Below are positions 16,889-33,442 of a DNA stretch of 64,000 nt, piece after piece (position 1 is the first letter of the stretch; each line of letters opens with the position of its first letter). Made by a program: the position numbers and the translations under genes. Source of the stretch: Carallia brachiata (lineage: Eukaryota; Streptophyta; Magnoliopsida; Malpighiales; Rhizophoraceae); assembly GCA_021464245.1 (NCBI GenBank), contig JADCRB010000071.1, forward strand, positions 2,976,001 through 3,040,000. The letters are read 5' to 3'. The notes below the pieces were generated by a model that was not told where the DNA came from, ran no database searches, and saw only the letters and a program-made list of their open reading frames with translations.

Positions 16889-18274
16889 TTATTTTATCAA
16901 ACATTCAGGAGGAAGGCCTTGGGGGAATCGCTTGGTGTCTGTACAATAATTGTAAATCATGAAATTTTTCTGCACCCACCTCAGCCTCTGTCGGCTCGGC
17001 GCATCCAGTTCTTCGTATAGCCATGTGCTATTTGAGGGGCAAGATGATTTTCCAGAAGACCAAACGCAAGCATCAGCATTATAATTCATATATGATGCAG
17101 TAAAAGGGGCCTGGGTCCAATTAGTCTTTACAAGGCCACCTCTCGTGGCCCAGTCATTCGCGTTCCACAGGCTTGAATGCACCCTCATTGGCTTGCTCTT
17201 CGGAAAGGCCACACCATTTGATTCCATGTTTCTGTATTCCCTTATGGGTGTACCATTAACAAAGAACCTGATGAAAGTATATAAATTAAAGCAAATTCAA
17301 CAAGTTAAATCAATGTTAGTAAAGATGGAGAAAAAATTTTAATTATCGAAACCCCAGATTTTTATTGTTACCCACACAATGGTTTTGTTGTTCCAGAGAA
17401 TGGAGTAGGTGTGGAAATTTGCAGCCGGGTCAAACCATAGGCGAAATTGTTGCTCCCTATCGCCCTTGCCGCCCGTAAAGACATTTGTATGAACTGTGTA
17501 AGGATCACCGCTCAAGTTCCCCAAGAATTCAAAGTCTATCTCATCCCATGCCGACCCAGCCGGCGATTTCAACTGTAACATTGTACATATGTTGTGCACA
17601 GTGAGCATAATCCAAGTGGAGACAACTAATTAAAGAGTAATGCCAAGGATATTTATGTCTAGGAAAAAAAAAAGTAGGGCACCAGAAATTTTTTGTTCAA
17701 AATTTTGCCTGATTTCCAAGAGATCTCAAATTTTTATAATTACCGTGATATTTTTTGCAATAAAAAAATTGTGATCTTGTTGCAATCGGATAAAATTTTG
17801 AAATTTTTTTTTCTAAAATTGTAATGAAACTCGTCTGCCTAAGCAATTTCATTGGTGTTCTAACCGGCATGACAGTGGCCATGATCACCAATGTATACAT
17901 ACACACAGGCAATTAGAATTGGTAAAATTGGTCAGGTTTAATAAAAGTGTTGGTAGCCCCATCATTGCAAATTGAAATAATATGCTTACAAAGTAGGCAG
18001 CGACGGTGCCGGCAGAGTCGCCAGGGACAAGCTTGATCTGCATGTCAATCTTTCCGAACAAATACTCATTCTTGGACTCAAAGCCTGAGCCTGTAGTATT
18101 GTCAAGGGAAAGAGTTAGAAGCTTGCCGTGGTTGAGTATCTTGCCGCGACCGTGACCCCAGCTAATCCTTACTTCTTCGGTGAAATTTCCAGCATATGCA
18201 ACACCAGAAGCGCCAGCCAGAACGTAGATTACCACTAGCGCCAATTTACATGAGATATATGAATATGTAGCCAT
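16889..18274 (-). CDS. Xyloglucan endotransglucosylase/hydrolase (XTH), group II type
   Basis: Three exons, 18274-17990, 17572-17376 and 17267-16889, give a continuous 286-residue protein, the normal XTH length. It is a secreted GH16 enzyme that cuts xyloglucan and rejoins it to another chain (or water) in the cell wall. An N-terminal signal peptide ends near residue 28 (about GVAYA). The catalytic motif [10 protein letters not shown] is at 105-114, with nucleophile Glu106 and acid/base Glu110. It is followed at once by the NLS glycosylation site typical of XTHs. The C-terminal XET_C region has its paired cysteines, including the [17 protein letters not shown] end. The motif begins with Asp where most XTHs have His, as in the TCH4/XTH22-XTH25 group. 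A paralogue of about the same length lies at 32.4-33.4 kb in the opposite orientation. Confidence 0.95.
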
Positions 18275-21200
18275 TTGTTTATATTTTCAGCAATGAAATG
18301 ATTAAGAGAAGGGGATGTTATGCTTGAAGCCAATGGCTAATTAATCCCATTTGTATAGTATGTGTACAAGGCTTGCGCAGACAGGACAAAATCCTGGAAA
18401 GAAATGTTAATTTTCAAGTTGGTGGGAAGAGGGATGTGGATAAGGTCACGTAAATGGCACCATTGATGCTTCTTTTTGGAAGGGAAAAGAGAAGTAAAAA
18501 GCATTGCGAAGTCTCTTTCTTTGGTTGAGATTTTCCTCTGTTTTTAATGTCGGTTGCAAATAGAGTGATACTTTTTTGAACAAATTAAAACAAGACAGAG
18601 TCAAATAAATCCACTGCTTGCGGCCTCGAATATGCGGTGAATGTGAATTCCAACGCACGCAGGGTTCGGGTTTAATATATACTGTTTGAAGGTCAAATTT
18701 AAAAATAAATAAATAAATAAATTGTTGGAGCTACTTAAGTGCATTCACGAAGTCTTATTCAAAGAAATTTTAATATGGGAGTTCGGTTCTTCGGAGACTT
18801 CATCACAATTTCTGGATCTTAGGGCTCTAGCCAAAAATATCTGTAGCTAGCGTATCCATTTGAAAGTGTTCTGCCTTGTTTTTTGGGTTTTGATGCCTCC
18901 TTTTGTTCTCATGTAATTAAGGGACCAGTAACACAAATATGATCCGACCCACGAATCTCTAGGAAAGTCTTAAGCTAAACATAAGAAAGCACGGACATCG
19001 GCTCAAATTTGTGAAATGTTGTATAGAATACGTATTAATATTGATATGCAGTTGACACAGACACTCAGTTGATATCGACACAGGTATGATATACAATTTA
19101 TATATGTTTTATATAGTAAAATGTGTCCCACCAAAATATTTTTCTTAAAAAAAATCGAATACAATTCAAACAAGTCAATGACATGTCCCGATGATATACC
19201 TAAGTTACAAAAATTTTCTCTAACAATGACAAACAAATTTAATTAATATATTATTTCTGATTATCCATAAAGCAGTTAGAATTCAATTATAAATTCATTC
19301 ACATACTAAGAAATATAAAAGTTTACAAGAAATACAATTGAATACATCTCTTTAAATTGTAAATGATTATCTAAAGGTAATACACTACCTTACAGGCCGA
19401 CGTGATTCGGATTTGAGTTTATGTACTCACGTTCTCTCTTGACAAATAATCAAGGGCCTATTACAGTGGAAAAAGATTGTAGAGAGATGTTAAGTTTCAG
19501 ACTCGATAATAATCATAATTTTCAGTGGCAGAAATACGGTCAGTTCTATTGACACTCTGATAGTAGGTCTGTCCATTCGGGGTGGTTAAATGAATCGTTA
19601 CAAATGGGATGACTCAAGTCTCGACCAATAAATTTGATGACTAATACACATATAACAAATTTTTTTCTGTTAAAAAAAAAATCTAAGCTAATACAACATA
19701 AAATCTAACGGTTGGCAACTTGAAGGGGGACAGTGTGCGCGCACGACTGGTTTATGCTAACAACGCTGGTCCTGTGGAGGAGTTGTTTCACGATTGGATG
19801 ACACATCTCCCAAAATGATTTTTTTTTTGGGTACATAAATTATGGTCTTTTAATATAAATAATGTATATTAATATAAATAATATATATTTTAAAGTTATA
19901 ATTAAAATATTTAATATAAATGCTAAAATAAAATATGGTCTTTTTCTGTTATTTTTATAGAAAAAAATAGTATGCACATTGTCTTTAAATTTTAAAATCA
20001 AAATTTATAAGTGTTTAAAAGCATGTGACGTGCATGCTTGGTCCATTTGGCTTTATTTTTGTTTTTCATTTGATACAATTTAATGTGCTCGATGCATGTC
20101 TGCAGCGTAGCAAAATTAGTATCTCTAGCATAGATAGACATGATTGCAAAAACATATGAAGCATATTTATTGATATACGAATTCAACTTTGACGTTTTCA
20201 TTGGAACACACCTTCCTTCTTTCACTAGACATGCAATTTTAATCCCTTTCTTTTTTGAGAAGTCATGCAATTTTTATCCCTACTTAAACACAAATCATCT
20301 GACTCTATCTCATACAGTTAATATGCTTCTGAAATATTAATTGAGACTCACACAATATGCTCTCGGTTGTGTTCTTCGTTCATATGTGTCATGATATATA
20401 AACATATAACCAATTTTGGCTTTTCATTTAAATATACAATATTGTGGGGGATTTTTACAATAATCAAAAAAGTTATACACAAGTATATATATTGAAGTAA
20501 TACTGAATTTTCCCTATCTTAAATCATTGGAGAGAACCAAAATTGGTAACATTATTAACACTTCTTGAAATACAAATAAAGGAGACTCGATTAACAAAAG
20601 CCATTAACTTCATAATGCCAGAAAGGATGGGAGACATGTCCGCCGGCCAAAATTCTTAGTGCCTTGAATTGCTGAATGAAGAATCTTAGACATAATTTAT
20701 ATAAGCCTATACTTAGTTAGTACAGACATACAGTAAAGTTTTATAAACTTTCCCTAAATATAAGGTGGACAATTCTACCGAAAGCATTATAGGAAGATAC
20801 AATCACATCCCGTTTTAACACAAATACTAATAATACTAGTTAGATGAATTAGTAGAACCAGTTATTGTTATGGGCGAAGAAAGTTAGGAATTTGCCAGCT
20901 TCTGTTGTGTCCCCAGTTACAGTAATTAGAAGAGAAAAGATATTATTACAGTCGTCGGGGCTGAAGGAAATCATAGGTGGAAGGCCAAAGGGGACACAAG
21001 GACGGCGGGCCGTGGTTGCTGACAGGAAAGCATATCTAGTAGGTGAATCGATGGGCTAAGTGGGCGGCGACACCACAACGGCACTTGCAGCGGAGGATTG
21101 GAGGGAATTTCTTGTGTTTCGTTTGAGTTCAGCGACCACATGCCTAAATTTAAACGGAATGGATCTTGAGTAGGTATGTTCCGGTAATTATGTAGTTGAC

Positions 21201-29542: not shown

Positions 29543-29550
29543 TATATAAA
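29543..29550 (+). promoter_or_regulatory. TATA box of the original plus-strand XTH promoter
   Basis: TATATAAA lies about 125 bases upstream of the original XTH start codon at 29667, followed by a CT-rich leader (CTTCTTCTTCTTCTG near 29610). Spacing and context fit a plant core promoter. Since the transposon insertion, this promoter is about 2.8 kb from the coding exon. Confidence 0.6.
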
Positions 29551-29666
29551 TAACCATGGAAGCCACTTAACCCCATAACAAGAAGTCCAACACTTGATCT
29601 TCATTTCTACAATTCTTCTTCTTCTTCTGCCTTTCTTGATTTTGATCTCTCCAACTTAAAGGCCCA

Positions 29667-29698
29667 ATGGCTTCTACAAGAATCACATTTATGCTACT
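29667..29698 (+). pseudogene. Displaced original 5' end of the XTH coding sequence
   Basis: ATG followed by eight codons (MASTRITFM), then CTACT, the left copy of the target duplication. If the 2,697 bases of transposon plus one target copy are ignored, this reads straight into the codons after 32390 ([10 protein letters not shown]), a typical XTH signal peptide. So this was the native start; it is now cut off. Translation from it enters the LTR after two codons. Confidence 0.88.
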
Positions 29699-30136
29699 TG
29701 AAGGAATATAAGACTAAATGATAGGAATTAAAACTGAAAATTTCAGTAAGGAAAGAAAGTTGCAGCAGCAGAAATAATGCTGCAGAAATTTCAGCAGAGA
29801 AGGAAAGTGCAGAAGTGGGATATTGCAGCAAGAAATTGAAGCTAAAAGGCTTAGATTTCATTCACATAAGTACTCCATTATATAGGAGTTAGGTACATTG
29901 ATTGGTACAAAAGAGATGATGACCTTAAACTTGCTTACACAACAAACTTCTACCTACTCCCACTAAAAGTAAGATCAATGCAGAAAATTCAGCTTTACAA
30001 AAAAATTACTGCACTTGTCATTTCATATTGATCACAAGTTACATACTAACTAAAACACACCATGATCAAAAAGAGTTGTTGATGAAGTTTGTTGTCTTCC
30101 TTTTGAGTTGGAACAGAAATGAAACTAATTCCAACA
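29699..30136 (-). repeat. Left LTR (3' LTR of the element)
   Basis: 438 bases, about 99% identical by eye to 31953-32390. Its outer edge abuts CTACT; its inner edge abuts the polypurine tract. Confidence 0.93.
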
Positions 30137-30202
30137 CTCCTCCTTAGTTTCATTGTTGTTCACATCCATTTCAGCTTTAAGGTTCTCAAACCTTGACTTG
30201 AC

Positions 30203-31909
30203 TTAATTTGTTGAACAATTTGAAAGTTGATTTTCTGGTTCAATACCAGAATTGAAGGCTTCTATGAATTGAAATTTCTTCTGAACAATAGGAAGAGTGA
30301 CTTGCTGAAAACCAATAAGTAACTTCCCATCATGAACATTGGCATTTGAATCCTCAAAAATTTTACTACTCTTGAAATTGATAGAGGAGATATGAGAGGT
30401 CATTTGCTGATCTGGTTTTGATGAGAATTCATCCATTTGTTGCTGGTTTTGATCCCTTGAACATGACAAATCAGAATTTGCTGCAATGAACTGATCTGAA
30501 CCTTCATCCAAACTCAGAGGAAACTTGTTCTCCACCATTAAAACTTTTAGAACTTCAGTGTTATTCAAATCATGAACTAAACACACATTTTCCTTAAAGG
30601 TTATTGAATAACCTTTCCTTATAATTTGAGCAACACTTAAAAGATTTTGTTCCAAACTAGGAATGAACAAAACTTCAGAGATGAGCTTGTTACCTCTGTT
30701 GGTTTTGAGAGAAATTGTCCCTTTGCCTTCAGATTCAACTATGGCTCCATTCCCAAGCTTTATAGGGACTTTATAGTTTGAATCTAACTCTTTAAAGAGT
30801 CTTGAATCATTGCACATGTGGCTGGTACATCCACTATCAATATACCAAGTTTGATCTTTGTGTGCAGCTCCAATTTCAGTGGCAACAAAAAGATATTCTT
30901 CTTCATTTTGCTGGGTAGTTGCAACCTGAACTTGTTGAATTTGCTGAGGTTGTTGAGGTTGCTGAGATTGATTTGTCTTGTTTTTACAAACCTTTTCAAC
31001 ATGTCCAAGCTGATTGCAAATATTGCATATTGCATCTGGTTTATACCAGCAGAACTTAGGAAGATGAGTTACCTTTTTACAATAAGGACAAGGATCAAAC
31101 TTGTTCCTTCCTCTTGCACTGCTTTCAGCTTGATTTTCATTTGAAACTTTAGTCTTTTTCATGAGATTTGGTAGAGAAGAGACTTGATGCTTTGCTGGAA
31201 ATGCACCTTCAACAGATTCCTCTTTCCTAAAGTTTCTTCTAAGCTCAAGAGCTTGAAGAGCATTCACTAACTCAGTGACAGTTAGTGTGGAGATGTCTTT
31301 GGAGTTTTCAAGTGAAGATATTAAGGAATCAAAGCTCTCTGGCAAACTTACAAGAATTTTCTCAACAATTCTTTCATCTTTGAGGTCTTCACCAAGTAAT
31401 CTAACTTGATTTACAACCTTCATGAGCCTATCAACATAGTCTTTTACATTTTCAGCTTCTTTCATCCTTAAAACTGCAAATTCTCTCTTAAGATTGAGAA
31501 CTTGCATCTTCTTTGTTCTTTGATTGCCTTGAAACTCATCTTGGAGCTTATCCCAAGCTTCTTTGGCTGATCCACAAGTCATGATTCTTGCAAATATGAC
31601 ATCTGAAAGTGAGGAGTGAATGCAAGTAAGAGCCTTGAAGCCTTTAGTCTTTTGCTCACTATGGTTTCTGACTTGGGCAACAGTGGGATTTTCTGGGAGT
31701 GGTGGAGGTTGAGCACCTGTTTCTACAACCTCCCACAAGTCAAATGCATTTAAATAGGCTTTCATTTTGACAGCCCATATGGCATAATTTTCTCCATTGA
31801 AAACAGAGGGTGAAGGAAGAGAAAAGTTGTTGGAAGCCATGAGAAATGTTCTGATTTTTTCTGAAGAGAAGTTGCTGAATATAAGTTGGTTGTTAAAGGA
31901 AGAAATCAA
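30203..31909 (-). CDS. gag: Copia-type Gag with protease motif, transposon-encoded
   Basis: Open frame of 568 codons, intact, with no integrase or polymerase following. The likelier start is Met24 at 31840 (MASNNFSLPSPSVFNGENYA), since copia Gag proteins often begin this way with the FNGENYAIW segment; that gives 545 residues. The N-terminal half is the DUF4219/UBN2-type gag domain. Two zinc knuckles of the CX2CX4HX4C form follow at about residues 275-310 (CPYCKKVTHLPKFC and CNICNQLGHVEKVC). Near residue 355 is WYIDSGCTSHM, the aspartic-protease active-site motif of copia polyproteins. The frame then ends with low-similarity sequence. Preservation of the frame fits the near-identical LTRs: the copy is young and may still make particle protein. 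Confidence 0.92.
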   Translation of the reverse strand: MISSFNNQLIFSNFSSEKIRTFLMASNNFSLPSPSVFNGENYAIWAVKMKAYLNAFDLWEVVETGAQPPPLPENPTVAQVRNHSEQKTKGFKALTCIHSSLSDVIFARIMTCGSAKEAWDKLQDEFQGNQRTKKMQVLNLKREFAVLRMKEAENVKDYVDRLMKVVNQVRLLGEDLKDERIVEKILVSLPESFDSLISSLENSKDISTLTVTELVNALQALELRRNFRKEESVEGAFPAKHQVSSLPNLMKKTKVSNENQAESSARGRNKFDPCPYCKKVTHLPKFCWYKPDAICNICNQLGHVEKVCKNKTNQSQQPQQPQQIQQVQVATTQQNEEEYLFVATEIGAAHKDQTWYIDSGCTSHMCNDSRLFKELDSNYKVPIKLGNGAIVESEGKGTISLKTNRGNKLISEVLFIPSLEQNLLSVAQIIRKGYSITFKENVCLVHDLNNTEVLKVLMVENKFPLSLDEGSDQFIAANSDLSCSRDQNQQQMDEFSSKPDQQMTSHISSINFKSSKIFEDSNANVHDGKLLIGFQQVTLPIVQKKFQFIEAFNSGIEPENQLSNCSTN

Positions 31910-31938
31910 GTGATCACAGGCCCCTCAAGAACAAGGAA

Positions 31939-31950
31939 GCTCTGATACCA
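31939..31950 (-). other. Primer-binding site of the Copia-type element
   Basis: Minus-strand TGGTATCAGAGC, complementary to the 3' end region of plant initiator-Met tRNA, two bases inside the 5' LTR at 31953. Confidence 0.9.
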
Positions 31951-31952
31951 TT

Positions 31953-32390
31953 TGAAGGAAAATAAGACTAAATGATAGGATTAAAACTGAAAATTTCAGT
32001 AAGGAAAAGAAAGTTGCAGCAGCAGAAATAATGCTGCAGAAATTTCAGCAGAGAAGGAAAGTGCAGAAGTGGGATATTGCAGCAAGAAATTGAAGCTAAA
32101 AGGCTTAGATTTCATTCACATAAGTACTCCATTATATAGGAGTTAGGTACATTGATTGGTACAAAAGAGATGATGACCTTAAACTTGCTTACACAACAAA
32201 CTTCCACCTACTCCCACTAAAAATAAGATCAATGCAGAAAATTCAGCTTTACAAAAAAATTACTGCACTTGTCATTTCATATTGATCACAAGTTACATAC
32301 TAACTAAAACACACCATGATCAAAAAGAGTTGTTGATGAAGTTTGTTGTCTTCCTTTTGAGTTGGAACAGAAATGAAACTAATTCCAACA
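31953..32390 (-). repeat. Right LTR (5' LTR of the element), joined in frame to XTH
   Basis: 438 bases. Its outer end (minus-strand TGTTGGAATT, plus-strand AATTCCAACA) meets the right CTACT and the XTH exon. On the plus strand its last 18 bases read ATG plus five codons (MKLIPT) in frame with the XTH signal peptide. A symmetric TATATA word near 32131-32140, the LTR's own TATA candidate, could in principle serve either strand. Confidence 0.93.
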
Positions 32391-33442
32391 CTACTTCTTC
32401 TGCCACTCCTTTTGGGCTTCTCGTTGGTTGCTTCGGCCAGAAATTTCTATCAAGATTTTGACATCACATGGGGAGATGGTCGCGCTAAGATACTAAACAA
32501 TGGGGAGCTTCTCACACTTAACCTTGACAAAGCCTCTGGCTCAGGATTTCAATCCAAGAACGAGTACCTATTCGGGAAGATTGATATGCAGCTCAAACTT
32601 GTTCCTGGCAACTCTGCCGGCACTGTCACTGCTTATTATGTGAGTGTGTGTGTGTGTCTATATATATATATGTACTTTTTTGTTGTTCTGGATTCCCACT
32701 CCTCAATGTCACTAACTAAAATTTGTTGCATTTGGATGTTGAATTTTCAGTTATCCTCAAAAGGGTCTACTTGGGATGAGATAGACTTTGAATTCTTAGG
32801 GAACCTGAGTGGTGATCCTTACATTCTGCACACCAATGTCTTTAGCCAAGGCAAAGGCAATAGAGAGCAGCAATTCTACCTTTGGTTCGACCCAACAGCC
32901 GATTTCCACACTTATTCTATTCTCTGGAATCCCCAAAGAATTATGTAAGCATCCCCTTAGTCCAATTGCCTTGTTACAGCTTTTTTTGTCATAACATTGT
33001 AATTCTTGCTTGATTTACGTTTTACTTTCTCTGTTTCAGCTTTTCTGTAGATGGCACTCCAATTAGGGAATTCAAGAACATGGAATCGATCGGTGTTCCG
33101 TTCCCAAAGAACCAGCCAATGAGAATATATTCTAGTCTCTGGAACGCTGATGATTGGGCCACAAGAGGGGGTCTTGTAAAGACGGATTGGAGCCAAGCTC
33201 CTTTCACTGCTTCCTACAGGAACTTCAATGCCAATGCTTGTGTTCTGTCAAATGGGGTCTCATCTTGTGGCACCAATTCTTCACCAGCTAACTCCAACGG
33301 CAATGCTTGGCTCTCGGAAGAGCTTGATTCAACGAGTCGAGGTAGGCTCCAGTGGGTGCAAAAGAACTACATGATCTACAATTACTGCACGGATGCCAAG
33401 AGATTTCCACAGGGCCTACCTCCAGAATGCCGCATGTCCTAG
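32373..33442 (+). CDS. XTH gene with transposon-derived start codon
   Basis: Three exons, 32373-32639, 32751-32944 and 33040-33442, give 287 residues of a GH16 xyloglucan endotransglucosylase/hydrolase. The motif [10 protein letters not shown] is at 98-107 (Glu99 nucleophile, Glu103 acid/base), followed by the NLS glycosylation site. The C-terminal region ends [17 protein letters not shown]. Residues 1-6 come from the LTR, and [16 protein letters not shown] onward is the original signal peptide, so secretion is probably still possible. No stop or frameshift was seen in any exon. Whether it is expressed is unknown: the old promoter lies beyond the transposon. It is a paralogue of the 16.9-18.3 kb XTH and may be a functional gene with a new N-terminus or a recently silenced one. 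Confidence 0.9.

What the first reader, a model, noticed from the sequence alone, without database searches (positions are those of the whole stretch)
29667..32639. A young Copia-type insertion split an XTH signal peptide, and its LTR supplies a replacement in-frame start codon
Target duplication CTACT (29694-29698, 32391-32395) places the insertion after codon 9 of the original reading frame (ATG at 29667). The outer 18 bases of the right LTR read ATG and five codons (MKLIPT) in frame with the rest of the signal peptide ([10 protein letters not shown]). The three XTH exons remain open and all catalytic residues are present. The gene has thus either been rescued with a transposon-derived N-terminus or is newly disconnected from its promoter (TATA at 29543). 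The LTR end is conserved sequence of the family, so any copy inserted antisense in the right phase could act as a ready-made N-terminus.
Basis: partly seen in the sequence, partly recalled or inferred. Interest (0 to 1): 0.9.

Follow-up and report, generated by a model that had tools for sequence, protein, structure and literature searches.

The report
Young gag-only retrotransposon splits XTH gene
A young gag-only Copia retrotransposon has landed inside the secretion signal of a plant cell-wall enzyme gene, most likely cutting it off from its promoter, although the transposon's end happens to read as a usable replacement start in the right frame.

Summary
A 2,692-bp antisense Copia element (29699-32390; 438-bp LTRs differing by 3 substitutions and 2 one-base indels; target duplication CTACT) sits in the signal-peptide codons of an otherwise open three-exon XTH gene. 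The last 18 bp of the right LTR read MKLIPT in frame with [16 protein letters not shown]. The element encodes only Gag, so it is non-autonomous, of TR-GAG type. Of 20 sibling LTR ends, 17 read MKLIPT; none was seen reading into a recognisable gene.

Rescue is unproven. An in-frame start is not improbable: 2 of 6 orientation-phase combinations, and 0.11-0.22 per phase for random LTRs. A native-promoter message meets 43 ATGs first, and the native ATG cannot be spliced in. Rescue routes exist: cryptic splicing into the right LTR keeps the frame, and a weak antisense TATA is present. Most likely this is a recent loss-of-function or strongly reduced allele with an accidental spare N-terminus; a tomato XTH allele with an exonic COPIA insertion nearly loses expression (PMC7426864, passages). 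No expression data were available.

The parts
29543..29552 (+). native XTH TATA box (TATATAAATA)
29667..29698 (+). severed first codons of the XTH signal peptide (MASTRITFM + part of LL), now running into the LTR and stopping at 29711
29694..29698 (.). left target-site duplication CTACT
29699..30136 (-). left LTR (3' LTR of the element), 438 bp
30137..30149 (-). polypurine tract (AACTAAGGAGGAG on minus)
   Evidence: internal end read on minus
30203..31840 (-). intact gag-only ORF, 545 aa from its ATG (a longer frame from TTG at 31909 is also open): DUF4219, Retrotran_gag_2, Pol_BBD; no integrase or reverse transcriptase match
31939..31950 (-). primer binding site TGGTATCAGAGC (tRNA-Met type, recalled)
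31953..32390 (-). right LTR (5' LTR of the element), 438 bp
32342..32370 (+). pyrimidine-rich tract with two candidate 3' splice sites (AG ending at 32361 and 32370), reading towards XTH
   Evidence: inference, judged by eye
32373..32390 (+). LTR-derived ATG and five codons MKLIPT in frame with XTH
32391..32395 (.). right target-site duplication CTACT
32373..32639 (+). XTH exon 1 as it would be read from the LTR start
32751..32944 (+). XTH exon 2 ([10 protein letters not shown])
33040..33442 (+). XTH exon 3 (end of GH16 domain and XET_C)

Best explanation
A non-autonomous, gag-only Copia element (TR-GAG type) inserted recently, in antisense, into the signal-peptide codons of an XTH22/23/25-like gene. 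The insertion puts 2.7 kb with stop codons and many ATGs between the native promoter, 5'UTR and ATG and the rest of the coding sequence, so the most likely result is a null or strongly reduced allele. The still-open reading frame reflects youth, not selection. The LTR end happens to carry ATG + MKLIPT in frame. The locus therefore keeps a complete ORF with a plausible secretion signal that could be used if any transcript starts in, or splices into, the right LTR. Shown: insertion, structure, frame, family conservation of the LTR end. Inferred: loss or reduction of expression.
For: Structure, TSD and LTR pair. Gag-only ORF (top ten protein hits 46-53% identical, several listed hits named Tnt1-94-type). 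Of the 15 LTR pairs that I count, 12 are 2,198-2,255 bp apart start to start, this one included. The native ATG now gives a 14-codon peptide, and no GT lies between 29667 and its stop, so splicing cannot restore it. There are 43 plus-strand ATGs from 29575 to the new ATG. Five of them lie between 32100 and the new ATG (32170, 32173, 32232, 32316, 32336), the last opening a 41-codon frame that overlaps the new ATG out of frame. An in-frame ATG is expected by chance at roughly 0.1-0.3. In print, an exonic COPIA insertion in tomato slXTH9 goes with near-complete loss of expression (PMC7426864, passages seen).
Against: No expression data were available. The ORF from the LTR ATG is fully open. Its N-terminal features (n-region charge +1, KD10 maximum 2.74, a 20-residue run without K, R, D, E, N, Q or H) lie inside the range of the 90 of 120 listed XTH homologues that could be measured (a crude measure). 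The four splice scenarios tried all give an open frame into XTH. A TATATA lies on the + strand of the right LTR at 32133.
Confidence: 0.7

Rival explanations
1. Rescue: the gene is still expressed with a transposon-derived N-terminus. A transcript from the native promoter is spliced from a donor in the left LTR (29746, TCA|GTAAGG) or the 5'UTR (29585, GAA|GTCCAA) into an acceptor just before the LTR ATG (AG ending at 32361 or 32370), or a transcript starts in the right LTR. Translation then yields [22 protein letters not shown] or a slightly longer form.
For: Both acceptors combined with the 29746 donor leave a frame from ATG 29718 open into XTH (300 or 297 aa); with the 29585 donor the first ATG is MKLIPT (287 aa). 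The tract before the acceptor is pyrimidine-rich, and the gene's own donors TAT|GTGAGT and TAT|GTAAGC are no better on the exon side. Crude signal-peptide features are in the normal range.
Against: No transcript evidence. The 29585 donor is weak. With the 29746 donor the native ATG opens a 14-codon upstream frame first. Splice quality was judged by eye, not by a trained model. The LTR's own promoter points away from XTH (orientation).
Confidence: 0.22
2. Assembly artefact: the element belongs elsewhere and was joined here.
For: None found.
Against: Perfect TSD, exact LTR termini, a slightly diverged LTR pair, and flanks that join to an open XTH frame when read without the element. The 20 sibling ends fetched have other flanks.
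Confidence: 0.02
3. The insertion is one allele of a heterozygous site, with an intact XTH allele on the other haplotype that this contig does not show. This can be true together with the best explanation.
For: The insertion is young (K2P 0.0069).
Against: Not tested: no reads, and the genome-wide XTH searches did not complete.
Confidence: 0.4

Closest known systems
TR-GAG (terminal repeat with GAG) Copia elements, e.g. Arabidopsis AT5TE33540 of ATCOPIA63 (PMC8704663, passages seen)
   Same: Two LTRs around a single Gag ORF of similar size (562 aa there, 545 aa here); no integrase or reverse transcriptase; recent mobility
   Different: Different sequence family by name; the autonomous partner known there (AT3TE48480) was not looked for here; this copy lies in a coding exon
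Exonic COPIA insertion in tomato slXTH9 (PMC7426864, passages seen)
   Same: Copia element in an exon of an XTH gene
   Different: There expression is almost lost; an LTR-supplied in-frame start is not mentioned in the passages seen; here expression is unknown
LTR-driven N-terminally altered isoforms in human cancer: LTR-IL-33 (PMC5513427) and HERVH-CALB1 (PMC10348765), passages seen
   Same: A host protein expressed from an LTR or provirus with a changed N-terminus
   Different: There a host internal ATG is used or proposed and the N-terminus is truncated; here the ATG and six codons would come from the LTR

Membership tests
Copia LTR retrotransposon | TG...CA LTRs, PBS, PPT, 5-bp TSD | tested here: met
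Copia LTR retrotransposon | Copia-type gag | tested here: met
   Pfam Retrotran_gag_2 2e-40, Pol_BBD 2.1e-25, DUF4219 1.5e-11
Autonomous Copia element | integrase, reverse transcriptase and RNase H encoded | tested here: not met
   internal region 1,816 bp, of which 1,638 bp is the gag ORF; no such Pfam match in it
TR-GAG | two LTRs and one Gag ORF only | tested here: met
   for the window copy
TR-GAG | a family of copies of the same short build | tested here: inconclusive
   12 of 15 LTR pairs have the same spacing (2,198-2,255 bp); the interiors of the siblings were not read for Gag
TR-GAG | mobilised in trans by an autonomous partner | not tested
   no partner search was made
XTH (GH16 XET) | Glyco_hydro_16 and XET_C domains, [10 protein letters not shown] motif | tested here: met
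TE-derived N-terminus in use | transcript and protein starting in the LTR | not testable with these tools
   no RNA or proteome data

The most novel reading that the evidence does not exclude
The antisense end of this Copia family's LTR is a portable, conserved 'ATG + n-region' (MKLIPT, with candidate splice acceptors a few bases upstream). In this XTH gene it already acts as the working start of a chimeric signal peptide, so one insertion kept a secreted enzyme alive while replacing its promoter-proximal end.
Probability: 0.18. Interest if true: 0.65.

Novelty: new member of a known kind. Interest (0 to 1): 0.36.

Why it matters
If the gene is dead, it is an ordinary but cleanly datable case of a gag-only element knocking out a cell-wall gene. 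If it is expressed, an LTR would supply both the start codon and the n-region of a secretion signal in antisense. That would show how an insertion in a signal peptide can be tolerated, since signal peptides accept many hydrophobic sequences (established knowledge). One RT-PCR would decide.

Tried and rejected
Bacterial-style promoter and terminator scan: not meaningful for a plant; counts close to shuffles; not used.

Rejected: that the native ATG could be spliced to the XTH body. No GT lies between 29667 and the stop at 29711.

Not found: other copies fused to genes. Of 20 sibling ends fetched, I count 16 independent outer ends. L026 and L028 are inner LTR ends followed by the PPT; L024 and L027 share their flank with L023 and L025, and for L025/L027 I cannot exclude that the shared flank is itself repeat or element interior. 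In-frame reading past the LTR end gave total peptides of 6-42 codons, except 64 (L018) and 68 (L022). Only those two were searched: a HEAT match at E 0.17, below its cut-off, and nothing. This test ignores introns, so a fusion with a short first exon would be missed. Not fetched: the partner LTRs, C39:74063 and the short partial matches; itself scored 40 of 75 candidates.

First splice check: I used exon borders off by one, and the translation broke in exon 3; corrected. I first took the gag ORF as 546 aa; one search shows that its ATG is one codon further in (545 aa).

Signal-peptide comparison: 30 of 120 homologues were dropped because length or anchor did not fit, and the anchor is crude. 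No SignalP-type predictor was available.

Literature: ten searches. No listed title or start of abstract shows a plant LTR supplying a start codon and signal peptide. Most listed papers were not opened; two searches returned no papers. In a limited library this is no proof of absence. Six papers were looked into, by passages only.

Full report
What is there. The window is a stretch of contig C136 of an unnamed 337.5-Mb genome. Its XTH protein is closest by identity, among the 120 hits listed, to Euphorbiaceae sequences (Ricinus 93% over 92% of the query, Hevea 91% over 98%), so the host is probably a member or relative of that family (inference). No listed hit is the host's own protein.

The element. 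It lies on the minus strand, with PBS TGGTATCAGAGC next to the right LTR and PPT AACTAAGGAGGAG next to the left LTR. The 1,816-bp interior holds one intact ORF of 545 aa from its ATG (30203-31840), with DUF4219, Retrotran_gag_2 and Pol_BBD matches and no other Pfam match, so there is no room for integrase or reverse transcriptase. Its ten best protein hits are 46-53% identical Copia-type Gag or Gag-Pol pieces, and several listed hits bear the name Tnt1-94. One search lists 40 scored matches to the LTR end out of 75 candidates. I count 15 pairs, 12 of them 2,198-2,255 bp apart and 3 closer, plus 10 unpaired. This is the anatomy of a TR-GAG element; the Gag content of the siblings was not read. 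TR-GAG elements can move in Arabidopsis (PMC8704663, passages seen).

Age. The two LTRs differ by 3 substitutions and 2 one-base indels, K2P 0.0069. At recalled rates of 1.3e-8 and 6.5e-9 per site per year this is about 0.27-0.53 million years. Polarised against 12 sibling LTRs, two differences arose on the left and three on the right; the last 75 bases are identical in both.

The gene. Exons 32373-32639, 32751-32944 and 33040-33442 encode a 287-aa XTH from the LTR start, or 290 aa if the flanks are read without the insert. Both have one terminal stop; [10 protein letters not shown] is present, as are Glyco_hydro_16 and XET_C domains. The best solved relative is 1umz. A second XTH gene lies at about 16901-18286 on the minus strand of the window (62-65% identity). 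No other XTH was found by tblastn in 264 kb around.

The start codon. The right LTR ends ATGAAACTAATTCCAACA = MKLIPT, in frame with [16 protein letters not shown]. Of 20 sibling LTR ends fetched, 18 keep the ATG and 17 read exactly MKLIPT. Of the 16 that I count as independent outer ends, it is 15 and 14. It is not evidence of design: the LTR terminus is constrained for integration (established knowledge of LTR elements). Two of six orientation-phase combinations of this LTR supply an open ATG. Random sequences of the same composition do so at 0.11 (last 21 nt) to 0.22 (anywhere) per phase. No sibling was seen reading into a recognisable protein, within the limits told under Tried and rejected, although several lie within 2 kb of gene-like ORFs (names by eye).

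Could it work as a signal peptide? By crude measures (length before the NF anchor, hydropathy, n-region charge) it sits inside the range of 90 measured XTH homologues. This is a necessary condition only.

Could it be transcribed and translated? Unspliced mRNA from the native promoter (TATA 29543; start taken as 29575, my estimate) would meet 43 ATGs before the new one. The native ATG now runs to a stop at 29711 with no GT on the way, so it cannot be spliced in. Two candidate 3' splice sites (AG ending at 32361 and 32370) leave 11 and 2 bases before the LTR ATG. Joined to the donor at 29746 they leave an open frame from ATG 29718 into XTH (300 or 297 aa), after a 14-codon upstream frame. Joined to the weak donor at 29585 they make MKLIPT the first ATG. 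The right LTR also has a TATATA on the plus strand at 32133, followed by five ATGs before the new one, the last opening a frame that overlaps the new start out of frame. Rescue is therefore possible but needs an extra step for which there is no evidence.

Weighing. A COPIA insertion in an exon of tomato slXTH9 goes with near-complete loss of expression (PMC7426864, passages seen). With a young insertion, an open frame says nothing about use. I put loss or strong reduction at about 0.7 and use of the LTR start at about 0.2. Whether the site is heterozygous, and whether close paralogues exist elsewhere in the genome, is unknown: those searches did not complete.

Noticed in passing
31953-32390: The 438-bp LTR contains no CpG at 33% GC, although the insertion is young; possible avoidance of, or decay by, DNA methylation (inference).
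   Followed up: no
30111-30161: The PPT/LTR border is an inverted repeat: GAACAGAAATGAAACTAA in the LTR end and TTAGTTTCATTGTTGTTC just inside it, 18 nt, 89% complementary, so the strand could fold at the PPT.
   Followed up: no
32336-32390: A second antisense frame of the LTR end also opens with a hydrophobic start, [18 protein letters not shown], so another insertion phase could also supply an N-terminus.
   Followed up: partly
16901-18286: A second, apparently intact XTH gene in three pieces on the minus strand, 62-65% identical; its splice borders were not checked.
   Followed up: partly
L009, L011, L019, L021: Sibling ends lie within 2 kb of gene-like ORFs (GH17-like, PPR-like, NBS-LRR-like, lectin-like; named by eye), suggesting insertion near genes.
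   Followed up: partly
L025 and L027; L023 and L024: Pairs of sibling ends share the same flank, suggesting duplicated segments carrying the element or insertion into another repeat.
   Followed up: no
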